The notes below the pieces were generated by a model, which had not been told where the DNA came from, ran no database searches, and worked only from the letters and a program-made list of their open reading frames with translations. Source: Streptomyces sp. CCM_MD2014 (GTDB taxonomy: Bacteria > Actinomycetota > Actinomycetes > Streptomycetales > Streptomycetaceae). From it: DNA of 64,000 bases. Below are positions 15,434-58,211 of this stretch, in pieces (position 1 is the first letter of the stretch; every line of letters begins with the position of its first letter). A program made the position numbers and the translations under genes. The stretch lies in the NCBI RefSeq assembly GCF_000772045.1, contig NZ_CP009754.1, positions 5,518,001 to 5,582,000 on the forward strand. The letters are read 5' to 3'.

Positions 15434-15441
15434 ACCGTCTG

Positions 15442-15515
15442 TGCGCCGCCAGGGACTCGAACCCCGGACCCGCTGATTAAGAGTCAGCTGCTCTAACCAA
15501 CTGAGCTAGCGGCGC
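15442..15515 (-). tRNA. tRNA-Lys (anticodon CTT), copy 1
   Basis: A 74-base cloverleaf: acceptor GCGCCGC/GCGGCGC with discriminator A, D arm GCTCAGTTGGTTAGAGC, anticodon arm GCTGA-CTCTTAA-TCAGC (anticodon CTT), T arm CGGGG-TTCGAGT-CCCTG. CCA is not encoded. The sequence is identical to the copies at 18871-18944 and 31575-31648. The rest of the 563-bp gap around it holds only the terminator at 15401-15433 and presumed promoters. Confidence 0.97.
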
Positions 15516-18861: not shown

Positions 18862-18870
18862 ATCCTGCTG

Positions 18871-18944
18871 TGCGCCGCCAGGGACTCGAACCCCGGACCC
18901 GCTGATTAAGAGTCAGCTGCTCTAACCAACTGAGCTAGCGGCGC
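18871..18944 (-). tRNA. tRNA-Lys (anticodon CTT), copy 2
   Basis: Same 74-base cloverleaf as copies 1 and 3, with anticodon CTT in loop CTCTTAA and no encoded CCA. The flanks differ from the other copies, so duplication is limited to the tRNA itself. Confidence 0.97.
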
Positions 18945-30972: not shown

Positions 30973-31584
30973 ATGAGCAGCACACGCAACGCCACGCCCC
31001 ACGTCTCGGACGTCACCTCGGACGGCGCCGCCTGGCTGGCGTCGGCGGGCGCGTACCCGCGCCACACGCTCGCGCTGTGGGAGGAGCGGCCGGGGGCGCC
31101 GGTCGTCCTGCCCTGCGGCTCCGCCTTCGACGTGGTGAGCGCTCCGGCGATCTTCGGCCGCCGGATGCTCGACCGGATGTGGGAGGACGGCCCGGGGTCG
31201 GGGCCGGTGGCGGAGTTCCGCGGCCGGATGCTGCTGTTCGCGGCGCCGGGCACCGCCCAGCGCCTGCCCTCGCTCCTCGACTGGGAGGAGTGGGGCGCCC
31301 GCGGCCGGGAGAGCGGCCGTACGGGTGCGGTACCGCCCCTGCTGTGCCACGGCGCCGGGGACGCGGTGACCGTCCCGCCCCCCGCGGGTACGGCCCCCGC
31401 GGACGCGCCGCCGCGGTCCGGGTCCCGCTGGCTGGTGGCCCCGGACACCCGCCGGCCCTGGCTGCCCGGCCCGGAGATCCTGCTCTGGGCGGCGGTGCGG
31501 GCGGCCCGGGCGGCGGTGCGGATTTCGATTTTTCCTCCCGCCGAGCAGGATGCTAAGGTCTACGACGTCAGCAGGCGCCGCTAG
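30973..31584 (+). CDS. Bifunctional primase/polymerase-like protein, partial domain
   Basis: 203 residues from ATG 30973. It shares a layout with the C-terminal half of the prim-pol proteins common in Streptomyces: GAPVVLPCGSAFDVVSAP, GPVAEFRGRMLLFAAPGTAQRLPSLLDWEEW, DAVTVPPP and SRWLVAPD...PGPEILLWAAVRAARAAV. The usual N-terminal part with its catalytic Asp motif is short or absent, so activity is doubtful. The family call is by eye and tentative. Its stop codon lies inside the tRNA-Lys gene (10-bp overlap with 31575), so the tRNA's 5' processing would cut the message. Confidence 0.55.
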   Translation: MSSTRNATPHVSDVTSDGAAWLASAGAYPRHTLALWEERPGAPVVLPCGSAFDVVSAPAIFGRRMLDRMWEDGPGSGPVAEFRGRMLLFAAPGTAQRLPSLLDWEEWGARGRESGRTGAVPPLLCHGAGDAVTVPPPAGTAPADAPPRSGSRWLVAPDTRRPWLPGPEILLWAAVRAARAAVRISIFPPAEQDAKVYDVSRRR

Positions 31585-31648
31585 CTCAGTTGGTTAGAGC
31601 AGCTGACTCTTAATCAGCGGGTCCGGGGTTCGAGTCCCTGGCGGCGCA
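31575..31648 (+). tRNA. tRNA-Lys (anticodon CTT), copy 3
   Basis: 74-base cloverleaf identical to the two minus-strand copies; anticodon CTT, no encoded CCA. It overlaps the 3' end of the preceding open frame by 10 bp and is followed after 6 bases by a strong intrinsic terminator. Confidence 0.97.
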
Positions 31649-31654
31649 CGATGG

Positions 31655-52066: not shown

Positions 52067-53095
52067 ATGACCCTCTCGACCCACGACTCCGCCGACCACA
52101 TCTACGCCCACGGCCTGCGCAACCAGTGGCACCCCGTCGTACCGTCCCACTTCGTCGCGCCCGGCGGCATGCGCAGGGTGACCGCGCTCGGCGAGAACTG
52201 GCTGCTCTTCCGCAAGTCCGACGGCGGCCTGTCCATGCTCGCCGACCGCTGCCCCCACCGCGGCGCGCCCCTGTCCCTCGGCAAGCACCTGGGCGACCGA
52301 GTCGCCTGCTGGTACCACGGCGTCGAGGTCGACACCGCCGGCACGGTCACCTCGGTGCCCGGACTGCCCGGCTGCAACCTGGAGGGCAAGACGCTGGTCA
52401 CCTCGCTGCCCGTGCGCGAGGTCGGCGGCGCGGTCCTCGCCTACTTCGGCGACGAGGAGCATCCCGAGCCGGTCGAACTCACCCTCCCCGAGCCGCTGGC
52501 CGACGACGAGATCTCCGCGTTCCTCTGCTACGCGGAGTGGGACGTGCCGTGGCGGTTCGCCATGGAGAACCTGCTCGACCCGATGCACGGCGCGTTCCTG
52601 CACTCCGAGTCACACACCATGTTCGCCGGTGACACCACGGCCAAGTTCCGCATCCGGGAGACCGGGCGGGGTTACTTCTTCGAGAAGACCGACCAGCGGG
52701 GCGTCAACTTCGACTGGGTCGAACTGTGCCGCACCGGCGTCGACTGGGTGGACCTCTCCATCCCCTACCCGCCGTCCGCGGGCCCCGGCGGACCCTTCGG
52801 CATCGTCGGCATGGCCTGCCCCGTGGACGCGGGGCGCACCGGCGTCTTCTTCTGGCGCTACCGCAAGGTGAGCGACTGGCAGCGCGACACCTGGCGGCTC
52901 CTGTACAAGACCCTCATCGAGGCCCGCCACTGGGAGGTGCTGGAGCAGGACCGCGTGATGCTGGAGAACATGCCCGCGGACGCCGACCAGCGCGAGAACC
53001 TCTACCAGCACGACCTGGGAGTGGTCCGGCTGCGCCGGCTGTACCGGGCGCAGGCGGAACAGCAGTCGGCGGTTCAGCCCGTCCCGGCCGGCTGA
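52067..53095 (+). CDS. Rieske 2Fe-2S aromatic-ring-hydroxylating oxygenase
   Basis: 342 residues from ATG 52067 (GGGAG upstream). The Rieske cluster is Cys62-Pro-His64 and Cys81-Trp-Tyr-His84 (CPHRG and CWYHG). The mononuclear iron site is marked by Asp171, His174 and His179 in ENLLDPMHGAFLH. This is the class of VanA-type demethylases and ring oxygenases. With its reductase it should hydroxylate or O/N-demethylate an aromatic ring. Its 3' end overlaps the convergent marR gene by 22 bp. Confidence 0.93.
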   Translation: MTLSTHDSADHIYAHGLRNQWHPVVPSHFVAPGGMRRVTALGENWLLFRKSDGGLSMLADRCPHRGAPLSLGKHLGDRVACWYHGVEVDTAGTVTSVPGLPGCNLEGKTLVTSLPVREVGGAVLAYFGDEEHPEPVELTLPEPLADDEISAFLCYAEWDVPWRFAMENLLDPMHGAFLHSESHTMFAGDTTAKFRIRETGRGYFFEKTDQRGVNFDWVELCRTGVDWVDLSIPYPPSAGPGGPFGIVGMACPVDAGRTGVFFWRYRKVSDWQRDTWRLLYKTLIEARHWEVLEQDRVMLENMPADADQRENLYQHDLGVVRLRRLYRAQAEQQSAVQPVPAG

Positions 53096-53625
53096 TCCGG
53101 GGCGGCGTCGTCGGAGTCCACGATCGAGCGCTCCAGCTTCGACAGCAGACGGCTCAGCTGACGGTGCTCGGCGGGGGAGAGCCCGCCGAGCATCCGGCGT
53201 TCGTTCTCCAGGTGCTCGGCGAACACCTCGTCCACCTTCGCCAGGCCCGCCTCGGTGAGCCGCGAGTACACCACGCGCCGGTCCTCGGCGTCCCGTTCGC
53301 GCACCAGCAGGCCGTCCTTCTCCAGCCGGTCGAGCCGCAGCGTCACCCCCGCCGAGGAGACCAGCCCGGAGGCGGCGAGCTGTCCGGCGGTCAGCCGGTA
53401 CGGGGCACCGGACCTGCGCAGCGCGGTCAGCACGTCGAACCCGGCGACGGACAGCCCGTGCTCGTCGAGCCGCGAGGTCATCCGTTGCTGGTACTGCAGA
53501 TACGACCGGTGCAGCCGGGCCAGCACCTCCAGCGGCGAGGTGTCCAGCTCGGGCCGCTCCCGCGCCCAGTCCGCGACGATCCCCGCCACCGCGTCCGGCC
53601 GCCTCGCCGCCCTGCCCTGCGCCAT
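53074..53625 (-). CDS. MarR family transcriptional regulator
   Basis: 183 residues from ATG 53625 (MAQGRAARRPDAV); a longer frame upstream has no support. The winged helix is LSVAGFDVLTALRRSGAPYRLTAGQLAASGLVSSAGVTLRLDRLEKDGLLVRERDAEDRRVVYSRLTEAG over 53270-53480. It lies convergent to the Rieske gene and its promoter has a TNAGNNCTNA palindrome like those in front of the catabolic operon and the MFS gene. It should repress all three and be released by a pathway compound. Confidence 0.9.
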   Translation of the reverse strand: MAQGRAARRPDAVAGIVADWARERPELDTSPLEVLARLHRSYLQYQQRMTSRLDEHGLSVAGFDVLTALRRSGAPYRLTAGQLAASGLVSSAGVTLRLDRLEKDGLLVRERDAEDRRVVYSRLTEAGLAKVDEVFAEHLENERRMLGGLSPAEHRQLSRLLSKLERSIVDSDDAAPDQPAGTG

Positions 53626-53662
53626 ATCATCCCCTCGCGGCGTACGTTCAGATGGAGAAATC

Positions 53663-53672
53663 TTAGCCCTAA
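53663..53672. promoter_or_regulatory. MarR-type autoregulatory site TTAGCCCTAA
   Basis: Core of the perfect palindrome CTTAG-CC-CTAAG (53662-53673), 37 bp upstream of the marR start. It shares TNAGNNCTNA with the sites at 42822, 42922 and 42937. Confidence 0.6.
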
Positions 53673-53722
53673 GGGAAATCCCCCGTCCGCCGGTCCGCTC
53701 CGACTCCCGGGCGCCCGGCGGG

Positions 53723-53987
53723 GCTGCGGGTCGGGTGGGAGGGGTGGTGGTCAGGGCCGCCAGGTCACCCGGTGTTTCCGCGGGGTGGGCCGGCACCGCG
53801 TGGTTGGCCTCCCATCCGTCGGGGCTGTGTCGTTCGGCCGCCTCCGGCGGCGTGCCGGACTCCGTCCGGCGGTTGGGCGGCGCGGCGCTGCGGGTCGGGT
53901 GGGAGGGGTGGTGGTCAGGGCCGCCAGGTCACCCGGTGCTCCGCGAGGTGGGCGAGCACCGCGTGGTTGGCCTCCCAGCCGTCGGGG
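53723..53987. repeat. Direct repeat: duplicated 3' end of the helicase gene
   Basis: Copy A (53723-53824) and copy B (53887-53987) are close to 90% identical over about 100 bp, offset by 163-164 bp. Copy B carries the last codons of the helicase gene, ending TWRP-stop at 53915; copy A is a degenerate copy outside the gene with a 1-bp insertion. Between them are 62 bases of unrelated sequence, and nothing else is seen in the gap 53626-53914 except the marR promoter. Confidence 0.85.
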
Positions 53988-55276
53988 AACTTCACCAGCG
54001 TTCCCAGCTGGACCGGTTCCGTGGACGGGTAGTCGTCCAGCAGGGCGCCCACGCCCTCGCGGCAGACCACGATGCACGCGTGCCGGTGCCGGGAGGCGAG
54101 GACGCACAGGCGGCCGGTCTCCAGGTGGAAGGCGGTGGCGTCGGGGCGGCCGGAGAGCGGGTGCAGGACGACCGTGACGTCGTACTCGCGGCCCTGGAGG
54201 CGGTTGGCCGTGTCCACGGTCACGTCGTGCACGCCGAGGTCGGCCAGCGCCGCGCGGACCGCCGCCGCCTGGTCCCGGTGCGCCGTGCCGACGGCGACAC
54301 GGGCGGCGGTCAGGGGAGCGGGGTCGGGGGAGCGCTCGGACGTCGCCCGTCCCTCCCGGTCGAGCAGGCGCCGGACCACCGCCGCCACCGCCCGCACCGC
54401 CTCCGGGTCGGTGCGCGGGGTGTGCCGGGGCGGCAGTTCCAGCAGGCCCCAGCCCGAGGCGGCCGCCTCGTCGATCACCCGGTCGGGACCCGAGCCGTCC
54501 GACGGCACCGCGAAGGCCAGGCGCCGGTCGCCGTGGTCCGTGCCGCTGCGGAAGGGCGTGTACGGGTAGAAGGCGTCCGAGACCAGCCGGGCCGCCGACG
54601 CGGGCAGGCGCCAGGAGACCGGGAGACGGTGCTGGGGGAGCCCGGGGTTGTGGGCCAGGAGGGTCGTCACCGCCGAGGACGACGGGTCGTAGGCCAGGCC
54701 TGCCCACTGCTCGCCGCCCACCGTCGAAAACGGGTCCAGCTGGCCCGGGTCGCCCACGAACAGCGCCCGTTCGAAGAGCCCGGCGACCGCGAGCAGGGAG
54801 TCCGAACGCATCTGGTACGCCTCGTCGACGATCGCGTGCCGCCACGGCTCGTCCACCGTGACGTGCGCCCACTTCGCCGCCGTGGACAGGACGACGGACA
54901 GCCCGGCGAGGTCGGCGGCCTTCGCCGACTTGCGGACGTTCTCCAGAGCGTCGAGCGCCTTGTCGTACGGGTCGGCGTCACTGCTGTGCAGGCGGCCCAC
55001 CGGAAGGTCCGGGTTCTTCTCGGCCAGGCGCAGCACCAGGTCGTCCACCTGCGCGTTGGTCTGCGCCACCACCATCAGGGGGCGGCCCGCCTCGGCCAGC
55101 TCCAGCGCCGCCCGCACCACGAGCGTGGACTTCCCGGCGCCGGGCGGGGAGTCCACGACGACGCCGCGCTCGGTGCCGTGCAGGGTGTCGTGGAGGATCG
55201 CCGCGGTGGCGCGGGCCGCCTCCGCGCCCGGGTCGAAGGGCGCGGGTGCGGGTGCGGACAGGGCCTCGGCGGTCAC
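53915..55276 (-). CDS. SF1 (Dna2/Upf1-like) helicase
   Basis: 453 residues from GTG 55276 (GTGA overlap with the upstream gene). Motif I DSPPGAGKSTL (about 43-52), motif Ia VVAQTNAQVDDLV, motif II AIVDEAYQM, motif III VGDPGQLDPF, motif IV-like LPVSWRLPASA, motif V VDTANRLQGREYDVTVVLHP and motif VI LCVLASRHRHACIVV are all present. It is shorter than Dna2 and has no nuclease domain; the nuclease is a separate gene in this operon. Third of three coupled genes. Expected role is unwinding DNA together with the Fe-S nuclease. Confidence 0.85.
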   Translation of the reverse strand: MTAEALSAPAPAPFDPGAEAARATAAILHDTLHGTERGVVVDSPPGAGKSTLVVRAALELAEAGRPLMVVAQTNAQVDDLVLRLAEKNPDLPVGRLHSSDADPYDKALDALENVRKSAKAADLAGLSVVLSTAAKWAHVTVDEPWRHAIVDEAYQMRSDSLLAVAGLFERALFVGDPGQLDPFSTVGGEQWAGLAYDPSSSAVTTLLAHNPGLPQHRLPVSWRLPASAARLVSDAFYPYTPFRSGTDHGDRRLAFAVPSDGSGPDRVIDEAAASGWGLLELPPRHTPRTDPEAVRAVAAVVRRLLDREGRATSERSPDPAPLTAARVAVGTAHRDQAAAVRAALADLGVHDVTVDTANRLQGREYDVTVVLHPLSGRPDATAFHLETGRLCVLASRHRHACIVVCREGVGALLDDYPSTEPVQLGTLVKFPDGWEANHAVLAHLAEHRVTWRP

Positions 55277-56916
55277 AGCAGGTCCTCCTCGGTCTGGGCG
55301 TCGGCGGCCTCCGGCACCGCGGCCGCCTCACCGGGCGGGCCGCCGTGCGTCCACGGGGTCTGCTCCGGGTCGGGGAGCTTCGCGCCGCCCCGCTGCTCGT
55401 GCTCGAAGAGCGTGAAGCAGACCAGGTCGCCCTTCTCGGGCACCGACCCGGCCTCGGGCTCCTTGCCGCGGCCCATCTTGTCCATGATCCGCAGGACCAG
55501 CGTCCCGCCCACGGCCCCGGCCCCGTCGTCCGGGCCGTCGTCCGACGGCGCGGGGCCGACGTACTCCGCCGTCTGGGGTTTGCCGCCCAGCGAGCGGTAC
55601 ACCTTCACCCGCTCGCCCAGGTGCGGGCGGTCGTCCGTGCGGACCGTCACCAGCGGGCGCGGACTGGGCCGCTTGCTCTCGCTGTACGCCATCACCACGT
55701 CGACGACCTCACCCGCGAACGCCTCCCCGGACAGCCGGCGCCCCGCCATCACCAGCGGGTCGTCCAGCGCCTCCTGGGCCTCCAGACGGGCCTGCTCGCG
55801 CTCGCGCGTGGCCAGCTTGTTCGCCGCCGTCACCGCGTCGTCCCGGCGGGGCTGCGGGGGCTCACCGGCCAGGATGCGGTCGCGGTGCGAGGTGAACGAC
55901 CAGCGGTCGCGGGTCCAGCGCTCCTCGACGTGCGCCCCTTCGGGCAGCTCGCCCAGCAGGTCCAGGCCCCGCCACACCGCGTCCCAGGTGGGGCGGGTAC
56001 GGCTCTCGACCAGGACGCGGATCTCCCGCTCGGCGGCCACGAGCGCGCCGAGCCGGTCGTCCGCCTCCAGTCCGTCCTCGGCGGCGGCCAGCGCGGTACG
56101 GGCGCGGTCGTAGCGCTCGATGGCGGGGGCGAGCAGCTTGTTGTCGAAGGCCGGGTCGGTCGCCGGGCCCGCCGGCGGGCACAGCAGCTGCCCGTCGGCG
56201 TCGCGGGCCAGCTCGGCGCGGCGGGCCGCCTCGGCGCCGGTCGGGCCGGGGTCCTCGGCGTCCTCCGGCGCGATCCACGCGAGCAGGGCGCCCAGGTGCT
56301 GGTCCTCCAGCGTGGACTGCCCGGTCGCCCAGTGCCGGCCCAGCAGGTCGGTCATGGCCAGGAGGAGGGAGGAGCCGGGCACGCGGGCCCGCTCGCCGTA
56401 GTGGGTCAGCCACCGGCCGAGCAGCGGCACCCGGGGCGGCGCGGGGTGCGGGGTCTCCGGGTCCTGCTCCGCCGTACGCCGAAAGCGCATGGAGCGGCCC
56501 AGCAGCCGTACGAAGTCGATGCCCGCGCGGCTCGGCACGACCAGCTGCGCGGCGTCCGCGCACAGGTCGACCTCGACCTTGACCCGCTTGCCCGTCTCCG
56601 GGTCGGTCTCGGTGCGCTCGGCGGCCTCTACGCGCTCCGCGTACGCCTCGACGTGCGGCAGCACGATGTCGGCCAGCTCGGCCAGGAACGCGAAGCGCAG
56701 GTCGCGGTCGCGGGGCTGCGGCACGACCAGCAGCCGCGGCGCGTCCCGGTCGGTGCCGACCAGCGCGCCGAGCGGGGCCCCGGCCTCACCGGCGGTGATC
56801 AGCGGCACGAAGACCAGCGGACGGTCGGACAGGTGCCGGTGCCGGACGGTGGCGGCGGGCTGGGCACGGCCGGTGCGCACGGCCTCCAGCCGGGCGAGCG
56901 TGGTGATCAGCGACAC
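55273..56916 (-). CDS. Large protein of unknown function between nuclease and helicase genes
   Basis: 547 residues from GTG 56916, which lies within the last 10 bases of the nuclease gene. The longer frame upstream is the wrong frame of the nuclease gene and is not used. No family recognised. The N-terminal third has beta-rich segments (RHLSDRPLVFVPLITAGEAGAPLGALVGTD, RLLVVPQPRDRDLRFAFLAELADIVLPHVEAYAERV), then a Cys pair near LLCPPAG, a helical/Arg-Glu-rich middle and a late OB-like piece (PLVTVRTDDRPHLGERVKVYRSLGG). Its overlap with both neighbours shows one functional unit. Probably an adaptor, scaffold or DNA-binding subunit. Confidence 0.75.
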   Translation of the reverse strand: MSLITTLARLEAVRTGRAQPAATVRHRHLSDRPLVFVPLITAGEAGAPLGALVGTDRDAPRLLVVPQPRDRDLRFAFLAELADIVLPHVEAYAERVEAAERTETDPETGKRVKVEVDLCADAAQLVVPSRAGIDFVRLLGRSMRFRRTAEQDPETPHPAPPRVPLLGRWLTHYGERARVPGSSLLLAMTDLLGRHWATGQSTLEDQHLGALLAWIAPEDAEDPGPTGAEAARRAELARDADGQLLCPPAGPATDPAFDNKLLAPAIERYDRARTALAAAEDGLEADDRLGALVAAEREIRVLVESRTRPTWDAVWRGLDLLGELPEGAHVEERWTRDRWSFTSHRDRILAGEPPQPRRDDAVTAANKLATREREQARLEAQEALDDPLVMAGRRLSGEAFAGEVVDVVMAYSESKRPSPRPLVTVRTDDRPHLGERVKVYRSLGGKPQTAEYVGPAPSDDGPDDGAGAVGGTLVLRIMDKMGRGKEPEAGSVPEKGDLVCFTLFEHEQRGGAKLPDPEQTPWTHGGPPGEAAAVPEAADAQTEEDLL

Positions 56917-58211
56917 GCGGACACCTCGCCGGCCCCGACTCCGGTCCCCGCCCCGGCGCCGATCCCGCGAGCGCCGCCGTCGCCCGCCGTTCCGCCGGGT
57001 GCCGCACCGGCCGTCGCGAGCGCCTCCGCGCGCAGCCGGGCCGCCCTGCGCAGCGCGGCCACCGCCGGGTCGTCCGGGTCGCCGGCCTCCCCGCGGGCCG
57101 CGGCCAGCACCTCCTCGACCGTGGACAGCCCGCCCAGCTCGGCCCGCACCGGGCGGCCCAGGCAGGTCACCGCACCGGCGTCGCGGGAGCGGGCACGGCA
57201 GTGGAAGGCCAGCTCGCACGCGGACAGGCACTCCGGCGCGTACGTCGCCGGAACCGCCTCGACCGCCGCCGCGAGCTCCTCGGCCGACTGGTCGGGGGAG
57301 AAGCAGACGCCCTCCGGGAGCGCGTCGGCGATCTCCTCGATACGGGTCAGCCGGGCCAGTTGGCGGTCGGTGACGGCGCGCTGCTTGCGCACGTCGACGG
57401 CGGACGCGGTGGGCAGGTTGGAGAAGTCCTTGGGGCAGACCAGCAGGACGCGGTGGCGCACGCGCGGGGCCGGGTCCAGCCGGGCCGCGACCCGCTCCAG
57501 GGCCAGCACGTACACCGCGGCCTGCCGTGCCGCGGCGCCGACCTTCGCCGGGTCGGCGGAGCCGTCCAGCATGGGGAAGGACTTGATCTCGACGACCGTC
57601 CAGCTGCCGTCCGGGTGCACCACCACGGCGTCCGGCTCCAGGAAGGCGGGAGAACCGGCGACCTCGAGGGCGAGCATCGGATGGTCGAGCAGCGTCCACG
57701 CACCGGCGGTGCCGGTGGCCTCGCGCAGGGCCAGCGACGTGCGCGCCGCACGCCCCTCGGGGCCGGTGGCGGACAGGTCGGGCACCTCCACCCGGGCCTC
57801 GGCGGGCGGCTCGGCACCGCGGTCCAGCTTCTCGTGCACGAGCCGCAGCAGCTCGGCGCCGCCGTCCGCCTTCACCTTCGCCTCGAAGGCGTTGCCCCGG
57901 ACGAGGGCGAACTGCGACTGCCCGAAGACCGACGGAGAGCCCAGCGCGCTCGCCAGCGAGCCCTTGTCCACCCCGGCGCCGTCGAGGATCGCCCGTCGGC
58001 GACACCCAGGGTTGGCGGCGAGGGCGGCCAGGGCGCGCGCGTCCAGCGCCTTGGCCGGTACGTCGGGACCGCGCAGCTCAGCGAGCCGGTGCCGGAGTCT
58101 CGTCCCCTGCGTCCGAGGGGGCGGGGTCCGGCTCGGCTCCCGCTCCGAGCCGCTGCTCGCGCTGCCGTGGAAATCGCTCACCCGCGGAAGTCTGGCATCC
58201 GCCACTGACAT
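56907..58211 (-). CDS. PD-(D/E)xK Fe-S nuclease (Cas4/AddB/RecB-like)
   Basis: 434 residues from ATG 58211. Nuclease motifs: RGNAFE (residues 106-110), PD in LEPDAVVV (Asp194), ExK in VVEIK (Glu208-Lys210) and RQAAVYVLAL (Gln230-Tyr234). Four cysteines, Cys70 (NPGCRR) and Cys328, 332, 338 (ECLSACELAFHC), fit an iron-sulfur staple as in Cas4, AddB and Dna2. A low-complexity Gly/Ala tail ends the protein. The N-terminal 45 residues overlap the PAP2-type gene by 134 bp in another frame; no later start is available. First of three coupled genes. Function is probably DNA end processing in repair or phage defence. Confidence 0.83.
   Translation of the reverse strand: MSVADARLPRVSDFHGSASSGSEREPSRTPPPRTQGTRLRHRLAELRGPDVPAKALDARALAALAANPGCRRRAILDGAGVDKGSLASALGSPSVFGQSQFALVRGNAFEAKVKADGGAELLRLVHEKLDRGAEPPAEARVEVPDLSATGPEGRAARTSLALREATGTAGAWTLLDHPMLALEVAGSPAFLEPDAVVVHPDGSWTVVEIKSFPMLDGSADPAKVGAAARQAAVYVLALERVAARLDPAPRVRHRVLLVCPKDFSNLPTASAVDVRKQRAVTDRQLARLTRIEEIADALPEGVCFSPDQSAEELAAAVEAVPATYAPECLSACELAFHCRARSRDAGAVTCLGRPVRAELGGLSTVEEVLAAARGEAGDPDDPAVAALRRAARLRAEALATAGAAPGGTAGDGGARGIGAGAGTGVGAGEVSACR

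What the first reader, a model, noticed from the sequence alone, without database searches (positions are those of the whole stretch)
53915..58211. Coupled Fe-S nuclease / unknown protein / SF1 helicase operon
A Cas4/AddB-like nuclease with four Cys and a PD-(D/E)xK core, a 547-residue protein of no recognised family, and a Dna2/Upf1-like helicase are joined by 4- to 10-base overlaps. In eukaryotic Dna2 the nuclease and helicase are fused; here they are split with an extra subunit. Such sets are often phage defence or DNA-end repair systems.
Basis: partly seen in the sequence, partly recalled or inferred. Interest (0 to 1): 0.7.

Follow-up and report, generated by a model that had tools for sequence, protein, structure and literature searches.

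The report
Dna2-like DNA enzyme in three parts
Three overlapping genes carried by most Streptomyces look like the pieces of one DNA-unwinding-and-cutting machine that eukaryotes make as a single protein (Dna2), and diverged extra copies of the set sit beside known DNA-break or anti-phage genes, which suggests an undescribed DNA-end-processing module with repair-like and defence-like versions.

Summary
The trio is real: nuclease 56907-58211, middle protein 55273-56916, helicase 53915-55276, minus strand, overlapping by 10 and 4 bp; these overlaps recur in 70 and 71 of 79 related loci. The nuclease has RecB-family motifs plus four invariant cysteines (iron-staple pattern). The motor is an Upf1/Dna2-like SF1B helicase without the stalk and barrel of that branch. 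The middle protein matches no family; its C-terminal part is predicted as helices plus a six-strand barrel. Top structural matches are IGHMBP2 and Senataxin (Z 9.1, 8.3), with Sen1 and Dna2 listed; flavoprotein barrels are statistically tied. Gene order equals Dna2 domain order. I read the set as a Dna2-type helicase-nuclease split over three chains. This copy is core: 140 of 150 genomes of the genus carry all three, 6 none, in fixed synteny, so it is not in a defence island. Diverged copies with a fourth gene are: all 13 second copies examined lie divergent to SbcD or to pPIWI-RE genes, three with Wadjet behind; three viral contigs show Vsr and a 5mC methylase. In the four pPIWI-RE copies the nuclease active site is lost. 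Function is inferred, not tested.

The parts
56907..58211 (-). Gene 1: RecB-family nuclease with iron-staple cysteine pattern, 434 aa
   Evidence: no Pfam, NCBIfam, PADLOC or PHROGs family at E<=1
58002..58004 (-). Cys70, first predicted Fe-S ligand
   Evidence: Invariant in 23 sequences and in 19 that include the distant L119 and L120
57582..57632 (-). Catalytic stretch D194 ... E208-x-K210
   Evidence: In one search, of 28 copies read: E208 and K210 both kept in 22, E208 replaced by D in two (L119, L120), both lost (E208L, K210R) in the four pPIWI-RE-linked copies
57198..57230 (-). C328-x3-C332-x5-C338, predicted Fe-S ligands 2 to 4
   Evidence: Invariant and in all 28 copies
56907..56916 (-). 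10-bp overlap of genes 1 and 2
   Evidence: Sequence; 10 bp in 70 of 79 loci
55273..56916 (-). Gene 2: middle protein, 547 aa
   Evidence: homologous to the middle gene of L119/L120 (hhalign prob 98.4, E 6e-15) and, more weakly, to the gene before the helicase on four actinobacterial plasmids (prob 93.5, E 2e-7)
55375..55827 (-). Residues 364-514 of gene 2: predicted helices plus six-strand barrel, candidate stalk and 1B barrel of an SF1B helicase
   Evidence: AF2 models, VIA-align
55273..55276 (-). 4-bp overlap of genes 2 and 3
   Evidence: Sequence; 4 bp in 71 of 79 loci
53915..55276 (-). Gene 3: SF1B (Upf1/Dna2-like) helicase motor, 453 aa, about 40 residues before the Walker A motif
55127..55150 (-). 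Walker A SPPGAGKS of gene 3
   Evidence: P45-K49 invariant in 26 sequences

Best explanation
The operon encodes a Dna2-type helicase-nuclease divided over three polypeptides in the order of the Dna2 domains: iron-staple nuclease, then stalk and barrel (C-terminal part of the middle protein), then the SF1B motor. The motor would run 5' to 3' along single-stranded DNA, the barrel subunit would hold the strand and tie motor to nuclease, and the nuclease would cut the strand as it is fed through. Shown here: the sequence motifs, the missing stalk/barrel in the motor chain, shared presence and loss, conserved overlaps and order. Supported but not settled: the barrel and stalk identity. Inferred: complex formation, polarity, DNA rather than RNA as substrate. 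In Streptomyces it most likely trims DNA ends or forks as a dispensable repair enzyme; diverged copies with a fourth gene are probably used next to end-sensing or defence nucleases.
For: Nuclease motifs and four Cys. Motor profile closest to IGHMBP2, Dna2 and Upf1, weaker to RecD2 (6e-6); the Dna2 structure paper says the Upf1-like branch has barrel and stalk, the RecD2 branch lacks them, and the barrel, held by two long helices, lies between nuclease and helicase (PMC4716839, passages). That the middle protein might supply it was written down before the model existed; the top VIA rows are then IGHMBP2 (Z 9.1) and Senataxin (8.3), with Sen1 (7.8) and Dna2 (7.6, rmsd 2.9 A) further down; domain alone: Senataxin 8.4, Sen1 7.9 on top. 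Co-occurrence in 150 genomes of the genus: nuclease 143, helicase 143, middle 142, all three 140, none 6. In two f37 genomes the helicase is 37 and about 50 kb away yet present. SbcD of SbcCD (the Mre11-Rad50 homologue, recalled) lies divergent to 9 of the 13 second copies examined, with a separate origin suggested for one, a long branch.
Against: Foldseek gives no match at E<=0.001 for either model. VIA rows for ferredoxin-NADP reductase barrels are tied within 1 Z unit and outnumber the helicases. The Dna2 row covers the barrel only (99 residues from 378), and a few reductase rows also reach into the preceding helix. IGHMBP2 and Dna2 are not among the 50 rows of the second search. Models are of modest confidence (mean pLDDT 56.5 and 72.8; in the second the barrel blocks are 46-86). 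Residues 1-255 of the middle protein are unexplained. Profile comparison of the nuclease with PDDEXK_1 is modest (prob 55) and with Cas4 nil (prob 4). No functional data. Four actinobacterial plasmids carry the motor plus a middle-like gene with no nuclease annotated directly beside it.
Confidence: 0.58

Rival explanations
1. The chromosomal trio is itself an anti-phage or anti-plasmid system that Streptomyces has fixed, degrading incoming DNA.
For: Diverged copies sit beside SbcCD, Wadjet, pPIWI-RE (one with HmaA) or Vsr/5mC-methylase genes; genus-wide fixation of a defence gene is possible; 6 of 150 genomes show none of the three, so it looks dispensable.
Against: This copy has fixed synteny (histidine phosphatase gene in 77 of 80 loci, PAP2 gene in 77 of 80), lacks the fourth gene found in the mobile copies (no match in 14 of 16 same-genus genomes searched, the two matches being at second copies), and seven core copies form one clade.
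Confidence: 0.2
2. The barrel of the middle protein is an unrelated OB-like or flavoprotein-like barrel; the protein is a DNA-binding or adaptor subunit and the set is a new kind of helicase-nuclease, not a split Dna2.
For: Reductase barrels tie in Z; no sequence profile link to helicases.
Against: The highest row in both searches is a Upf1-like helicase; most reductase alignments start at the barrel and cover 94-110 residues (a few start earlier, up to 116), while those to IGHMBP2, Senataxin, Sen1 and aquarius start in the preceding helices and cover 117-152 (Dna2 is the exception); the partner motor is of the branch that has such a domain and carries none.
Confidence: 0.28
3. The machine acts on RNA (Upf1, Senataxin and IGHMBP2 are RNA or RNA/DNA helicases).
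For: Motor and barrel resemble RNA helicases as much as Dna2.
Against: Iron-staple nucleases known to me (AddB, Dna2, Cas4, Bad) act on DNA (partly recalled); neighbours of the diverged copies are DNA enzymes.
Confidence: 0.08

Closest known systems
Eukaryotic Dna2
   Same: Iron-staple nuclease, barrel on a stalk, SF1B motor, in that order (PMC4716839, passages)
   Different: Three chains, not one; no N-terminal OB domain recognised; large unexplained N-terminal part on the barrel chain; barrel identity not settled
Bad, bacterial Dna2-like helicase-nuclease (PMC7430649: abstract, one section and passages seen)
   Same: Bacterial Fe-S nuclease plus SF1B helicase; its biochemistry gives testable predictions (5'-3' motion, ssDNA endonuclease)
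   Different: Bad is one fused chain, reported as few and sporadic; 'Streptomyces' occurs 0 times in the main text
AddAB / AdnAB
   Same: Helicase-nuclease with Fe-S nuclease domains (recalled); four PDDEXK_1 matches occur elsewhere in the window's own genome
   Different: SF1A UvrD-type motors fused to nuclease domains (recalled); the trio is encoded apart from them
Wadjet, pPIWI-RE, Hma
   Same: Neighbours of diverged copies
   Different: No PADLOC 2.0 model matches gene 1 or gene 2 at E<=1; the L119 middle protein has one marginal match (PDC-M02B, E 0.0077)

Membership tests
Dna2 | Nuclease with four-Cys iron-staple pattern and D, ExK, QxxxY motifs | tested here: met
   Spacing is C-x3-C-x5-C; the PDDEXK_1 set has x2 and x5; Dna2/AddB spacing is recalled
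Dna2 | Bound 4Fe-4S cluster | not testable with these tools
   Needs protein
Dna2 | Upf1-like SF1B motor | tested here: met
   Profile E 4e-14 to Dna2, 1e-14 to IGHMBP2
Dna2 | Barrel on a helical stalk between nuclease and motor | tested here: inconclusive
   Position and topology fit; best VIA Z 9.1, tied with unrelated barrels
Dna2 | Nuclease and helicase in one polypeptide | tested here: not met
   Three ORFs; an apparent middle-helicase fusion in G431 lies in a stretch with runs of N and a frame change
Known anti-phage system (PADLOC 2.0) | Hit to a listed component for nuclease or middle protein | tested here: not met
   No family at E<=1
Defence-island gene | Moves between genomes beside defence genes | tested here: not met
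   For the window copy: fixed synteny. The diverged copies do lie beside such genes
Cas4 | Profile match to Cas4 | tested here: inconclusive
   hhalign prob 4 against eight actinobacterial Cas4 domains; PDDEXK_1 prob 55 over 43 columns

The most novel reading that the evidence does not exclude
An undescribed modular enzyme: a three-chain Dna2 that exists as a core repair enzyme in Streptomyces and relatives and, with a fourth gene, as a mobile effector module that plugs into different DNA-sensing partners (SbcCD with or without Wadjet, pPIWI-RE, Vsr/5mC methylase); when paired with pPIWI-RE, which brings its own nuclease, it keeps the nuclease subunit as a dead scaffold with its cysteines.
Probability: 0.4. 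Interest if true: 0.8.

Novelty: new variant of a known kind. Interest (0 to 1): 0.62.

Why it matters
Dna2-like enzymes are reported as one fused chain; a three-part version in most Streptomyces would let nuclease, barrel and motor be assayed apart. It would also link a core repair-like machine to phage defence through traceable diverged copies, and adds an unannotated candidate component to pPIWI-RE and SbcCD/Wadjet neighbourhoods. Whether the barrel can be supplied in trans to an SF1B motor is a direct test of how these helicases work.

Tried and rejected
Phage and viral origin: no tblastn match in the phage collection for P0001, the L114 helicase or the L119 middle protein; viral contigs gave only three contigs with the set or part of it (L119, L120, partial L123; L121 and L122 are the same two contigs again). 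On plasmids the middle protein was found in 3 of 72,556 records, the helicase family in 52.

Wider spread: a profile search of 246 genomes of the phylum found the middle protein in 11, ten of them in the same class; the eleventh (G198, E 4e-4, stops inside) is probably chance.

Gene fusion in G431: one open frame spans middle and helicase, but the 12-kb stretch holds 3612 N and the barrel reading changes frame; rejected. Other incomplete genomes: G526 has the helicase at a contig edge; G422 and G517 (630 and 1420 contigs, partial hits) were not inspected. Of the six genomes with none of the genes, G470 is only 82% complete in 1770 contigs and G534 has 950 contigs, so their absence is less sure.

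Comparison of the barrel with bacterial IGHMBP2-family helicases: the TIGR00376 search gave no member over the cut-off in 119 genomes, so no profile was built. Nuclease against Cas4: nil. A link of the middle protein to 6q1h (E 0.13) and of the nuclease to designed repeat proteins was judged chance. Fourth gene: weak match to the UvrB C-terminus (E 0.0026) and one ZorF match in one of ten members (E 3.6e-4), taken as coiled coil only; a winged helix is my reading by eye. IGHMBP2 and Dna2 do not appear among the 50 rows of the second VIA search.

Rows dropped or flawed: L118 was left out of the plasmid middle-gene alignment A7 (short, 23% identical); A3 holds one frame-shifted row (L099) and rows cut by locus ends (L104, L106); A10 leaves out L110.

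Literature: no paper on this trio was seen in the listings of searches (open-licence library only, no preprints; two returned nothing; most listed papers were not opened). PMC12839542 has no Dna2, Upf1 or Wadjet in its text (passages).

Full report
WHAT IS THERE. The three ORFs lie on the minus strand as stated and overlap by 10 bp and 4 bp. Of the 80 loci (79 titled Streptomyces, one 'Actinobacteria bacterium'), 79 hold all three genes (in L069 the locus begins at the contig end). In these 79 the 10-bp overlap is kept in 70 and the 4-bp overlap in 71 (for the helicase the start nearest the preceding stop was taken), which argues for translational coupling. Gene 1 (434 aa) and gene 2 (547 aa) match no family in Pfam, NCBIfam, PADLOC 2.0 or PHROGs above noise; gene 3 matches AAA_11, AAA_12 and AAA_30 and an unnamed PHROG. 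That the window's genus is Streptomyces is inferred from the titles.

NUCLEASE. Across 23 sequences down to 43% identity C70, D194, Q230, Y234, C328, C332 and C338 are invariant; E208 and K210 change only in L110, a second copy. With the much more distant L119 and L120 the four cysteines, D194, K210 and Q230 stay invariant, E208 becomes D and Y234 is replaced. This is the pattern described for iron-staple nucleases: four nuclease motifs and four Cys spanning the domain (PMC7430649, one section read). Profile comparison with twelve PDDEXK_1 domains from actinobacterial genomes gives only prob 55, over the 43 columns around D, ExK and QxxxY, and nothing useful with Cas4. The assignment therefore rests on the motif pattern.

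MOTOR. The 26-row helicase profile finds IGHMBP2 (1.3e-14), Dna2 (4.2e-14), Upf1 (2.8e-12), a Senataxin-type helicase and Sen1, and RecD2 more weakly (6e-6). The Walker A stretch begins at residue 43, so there is no room for the stalk and barrel that precede the motor in IGHMBP2 and Dna2: residues 39-86 align with IGHMBP2 208-255 and residues 41-184 with Dna2 647-796.

MIDDLE PROTEIN. In L119 and L120 a 466-476 aa gene stands at the same place and is homologous to it (hhalign prob 98.4, E 6e-15 over 427 columns). The nuclease neighbours are homologous too (prob 98.8). On four plasmids (Rhodococcus, Mycolicibacterium, Euzebya) a roughly 400-450 aa gene in front of the related helicase is a weaker relative (prob 93.5), with no nuclease annotated directly beside it (in L117 a PDDEXK gene lies about 4 kb away on the other strand). 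Before modelling I noted that the C-terminal part could be the stalk and barrel of a Dna2/Upf1 helicase. AlphaFold2 on 42 rows gave a low-confidence whole (pLDDT 56.5); blocks from about 381 to 500 are mostly 68-90 with a dip to 45 near 461-470: helices, then six strands. VIA-align puts IGHMBP2 first (Z 9.1, 118 residues, chain residues 12-152) and Senataxin second (8.3), with Sen1 (7.8, rank 8) and Dna2 (7.6, rank 27, rmsd 2.9, 99 residues, chain residues 461-568) among ferredoxin-NADP reductase barrels at 7.3-8.2. Modelled alone (pLDDT 72.8, mostly from the helices; barrel blocks 46-86) the region ranks Senataxin (8.4, 123 residues) and Sen1 (7.9, 126) first, with aquarius at 7.7 over 152 residues and reductases at 7.7 or less. 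What tips the balance for me is that a Upf1-like helicase ranks first in both searches, that most helicase alignments are longer because they start in the helices before the barrel, and that the partner motor belongs to the branch that has such a domain but lacks it. Against this, the Dna2 alignment covers the barrel alone and some reductase alignments also start early. That the matched IGHMBP2, Senataxin and Sen1 residues are the stalk and barrel is recalled, except for what the Dna2 paper says: order nuclease, barrel held by a stalk of two long helices, helicase 1A and 2A; same barrel and stalk in Ighmbp2; neither in the RecD2 branch (PMC4716839, passages).

DISTRIBUTION OF THIS COPY. In 197 genomes of the class the middle protein is found in 29, of which 16 are of the same genus and 13 belong to four other families; in 246 genomes of the phylum in 11, one doubtful. 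The trio stays together: of 30 loci the nuclease is adjacent in 30 and the helicase in 27; the exceptions are two f37 genomes and one short locus. In the f37 genomes the helicase is 37 and about 50 kb away. In 150 genomes of the genus the nuclease is found in 143, the helicase in 143, the middle protein in 142; all three in 140, none in six (G457, G470, G527, G534, G535, G548). Of the four partial cases one has a run of N, one a contig edge, and two are fragmented assemblies not inspected. Joint loss points to one functional unit that is not essential. Synteny is fixed: the phosphatase gene and the PAP2 gene are each found upstream in 77 of 80 loci, and the two loci without either begin at contig ends. 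So this copy is core and vertical, not a defence-island gene.

DIVERGED COPIES. Second copies, 36-43% identical in the middle protein (tblastn), were seen in 11 of the 150 genomes (listings were truncated, so at least 11) and related sets on two Streptomyces plasmids. All 13 have a fourth gene (about 280 aa, no family) just before the nuclease. Nine of the 13 lie divergent to SbcD (SbcC also seen in eight; the SbcCD genes are fragmentary at least in L112 and L218), and three of those are followed by all four Wadjet genes jetABCD (L111 and L112 by annotation; L111 by PADLOC; L219 by tblastn). The other four lie divergent to the PD-(D/E)XK and DinG genes of a pPIWI-RE system; in L149 a HmaA helicase follows. 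In all four pPIWI-RE copies the nuclease has lost its catalytic residues (E208L, K210R) but kept the four Cys; in all nine SbcD-linked copies it is intact. Three viral contigs carry the set, or its end, followed by Vsr and a 5mC methylase on the other strand. In the helicase tree seven core copies form one group (100/99), the four pPIWI-RE copies another (99/100), and SbcD linkage needs two origins because L150 stands apart (L150 is a long branch). Five further copies with the fourth gene (L113, L137, L138, L144, L147), and the f18 and f37 copies without it, show none of these neighbours within about 8-10 kb in the same tblastn screen; a transposase lies near L138. Wadjet is common in Actinobacteria (42% of genomes, PMC10482375, passages), but here it is directly adjacent.

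READING. The best-supported account is a Dna2-type helicase-nuclease on three chains. For the Streptomyces core copy I favour DNA-end or fork processing; the link of diverged copies to SbcCD, the Mre11-Rad50 homologue (recalled), fits end resection, and the link to Wadjet, pPIWI-RE and Vsr/methylase genes fits DNA degradation or end handling in defence. None of this is tested. What the first 255 residues of the middle protein and the fourth gene do is unknown.

Noticed in passing
window 53718-53824 and 53882-53987: The last ~105 bp of the helicase gene are repeated about 164 bp downstream (92-98% identical). Repeats of the C-terminal 20-24 codons, one or two further copies, are seen in up to 30 of 80 loci at a loose threshold (a few doubtful), often with changes shared between the copies of one species; looks like recurrent duplication or gene conversion, perhaps an old integration site.
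   Followed up: partly
window 53074-53796: The MarR-family ORF as listed starts inside that repeat; the likely start is the ATG near 53625.
   Followed up: no
L149, L216, L222, L223: pPIWI-RE-linked copies have a nuclease without its catalytic residues that keeps its four cysteines, beside the PD-(D/E)XK gene of pPIWI-RE.
   Followed up: partly
L111, L112, L215: Some second copies lie within 2-16 kb of a record end: a linear plasmid (L111), a plasmid record marked circular (L112) and a one-contig chromosome (L215).
   Followed up: no
L114, L115, L117 (upstream of the helicase): On Rhodococcus and Mycolicibacterium plasmids the middle-like gene and helicase follow an AAA ATPase, a VWA-like gene and a small gene in a conserved five-gene row.
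   Followed up: no
L119:4106-10315, L120:1-6278: Four-gene set followed by Vsr and a 5mC methylase, with an integrase upstream in L119: a candidate unlisted restriction or defence island.
   Followed up: partly
window 15441-15515, 18870-18944, 31575-31649: Three tRNA-Lys (CTT) genes within about 16 kb, possibly duplicated integration sites.
   Followed up: no
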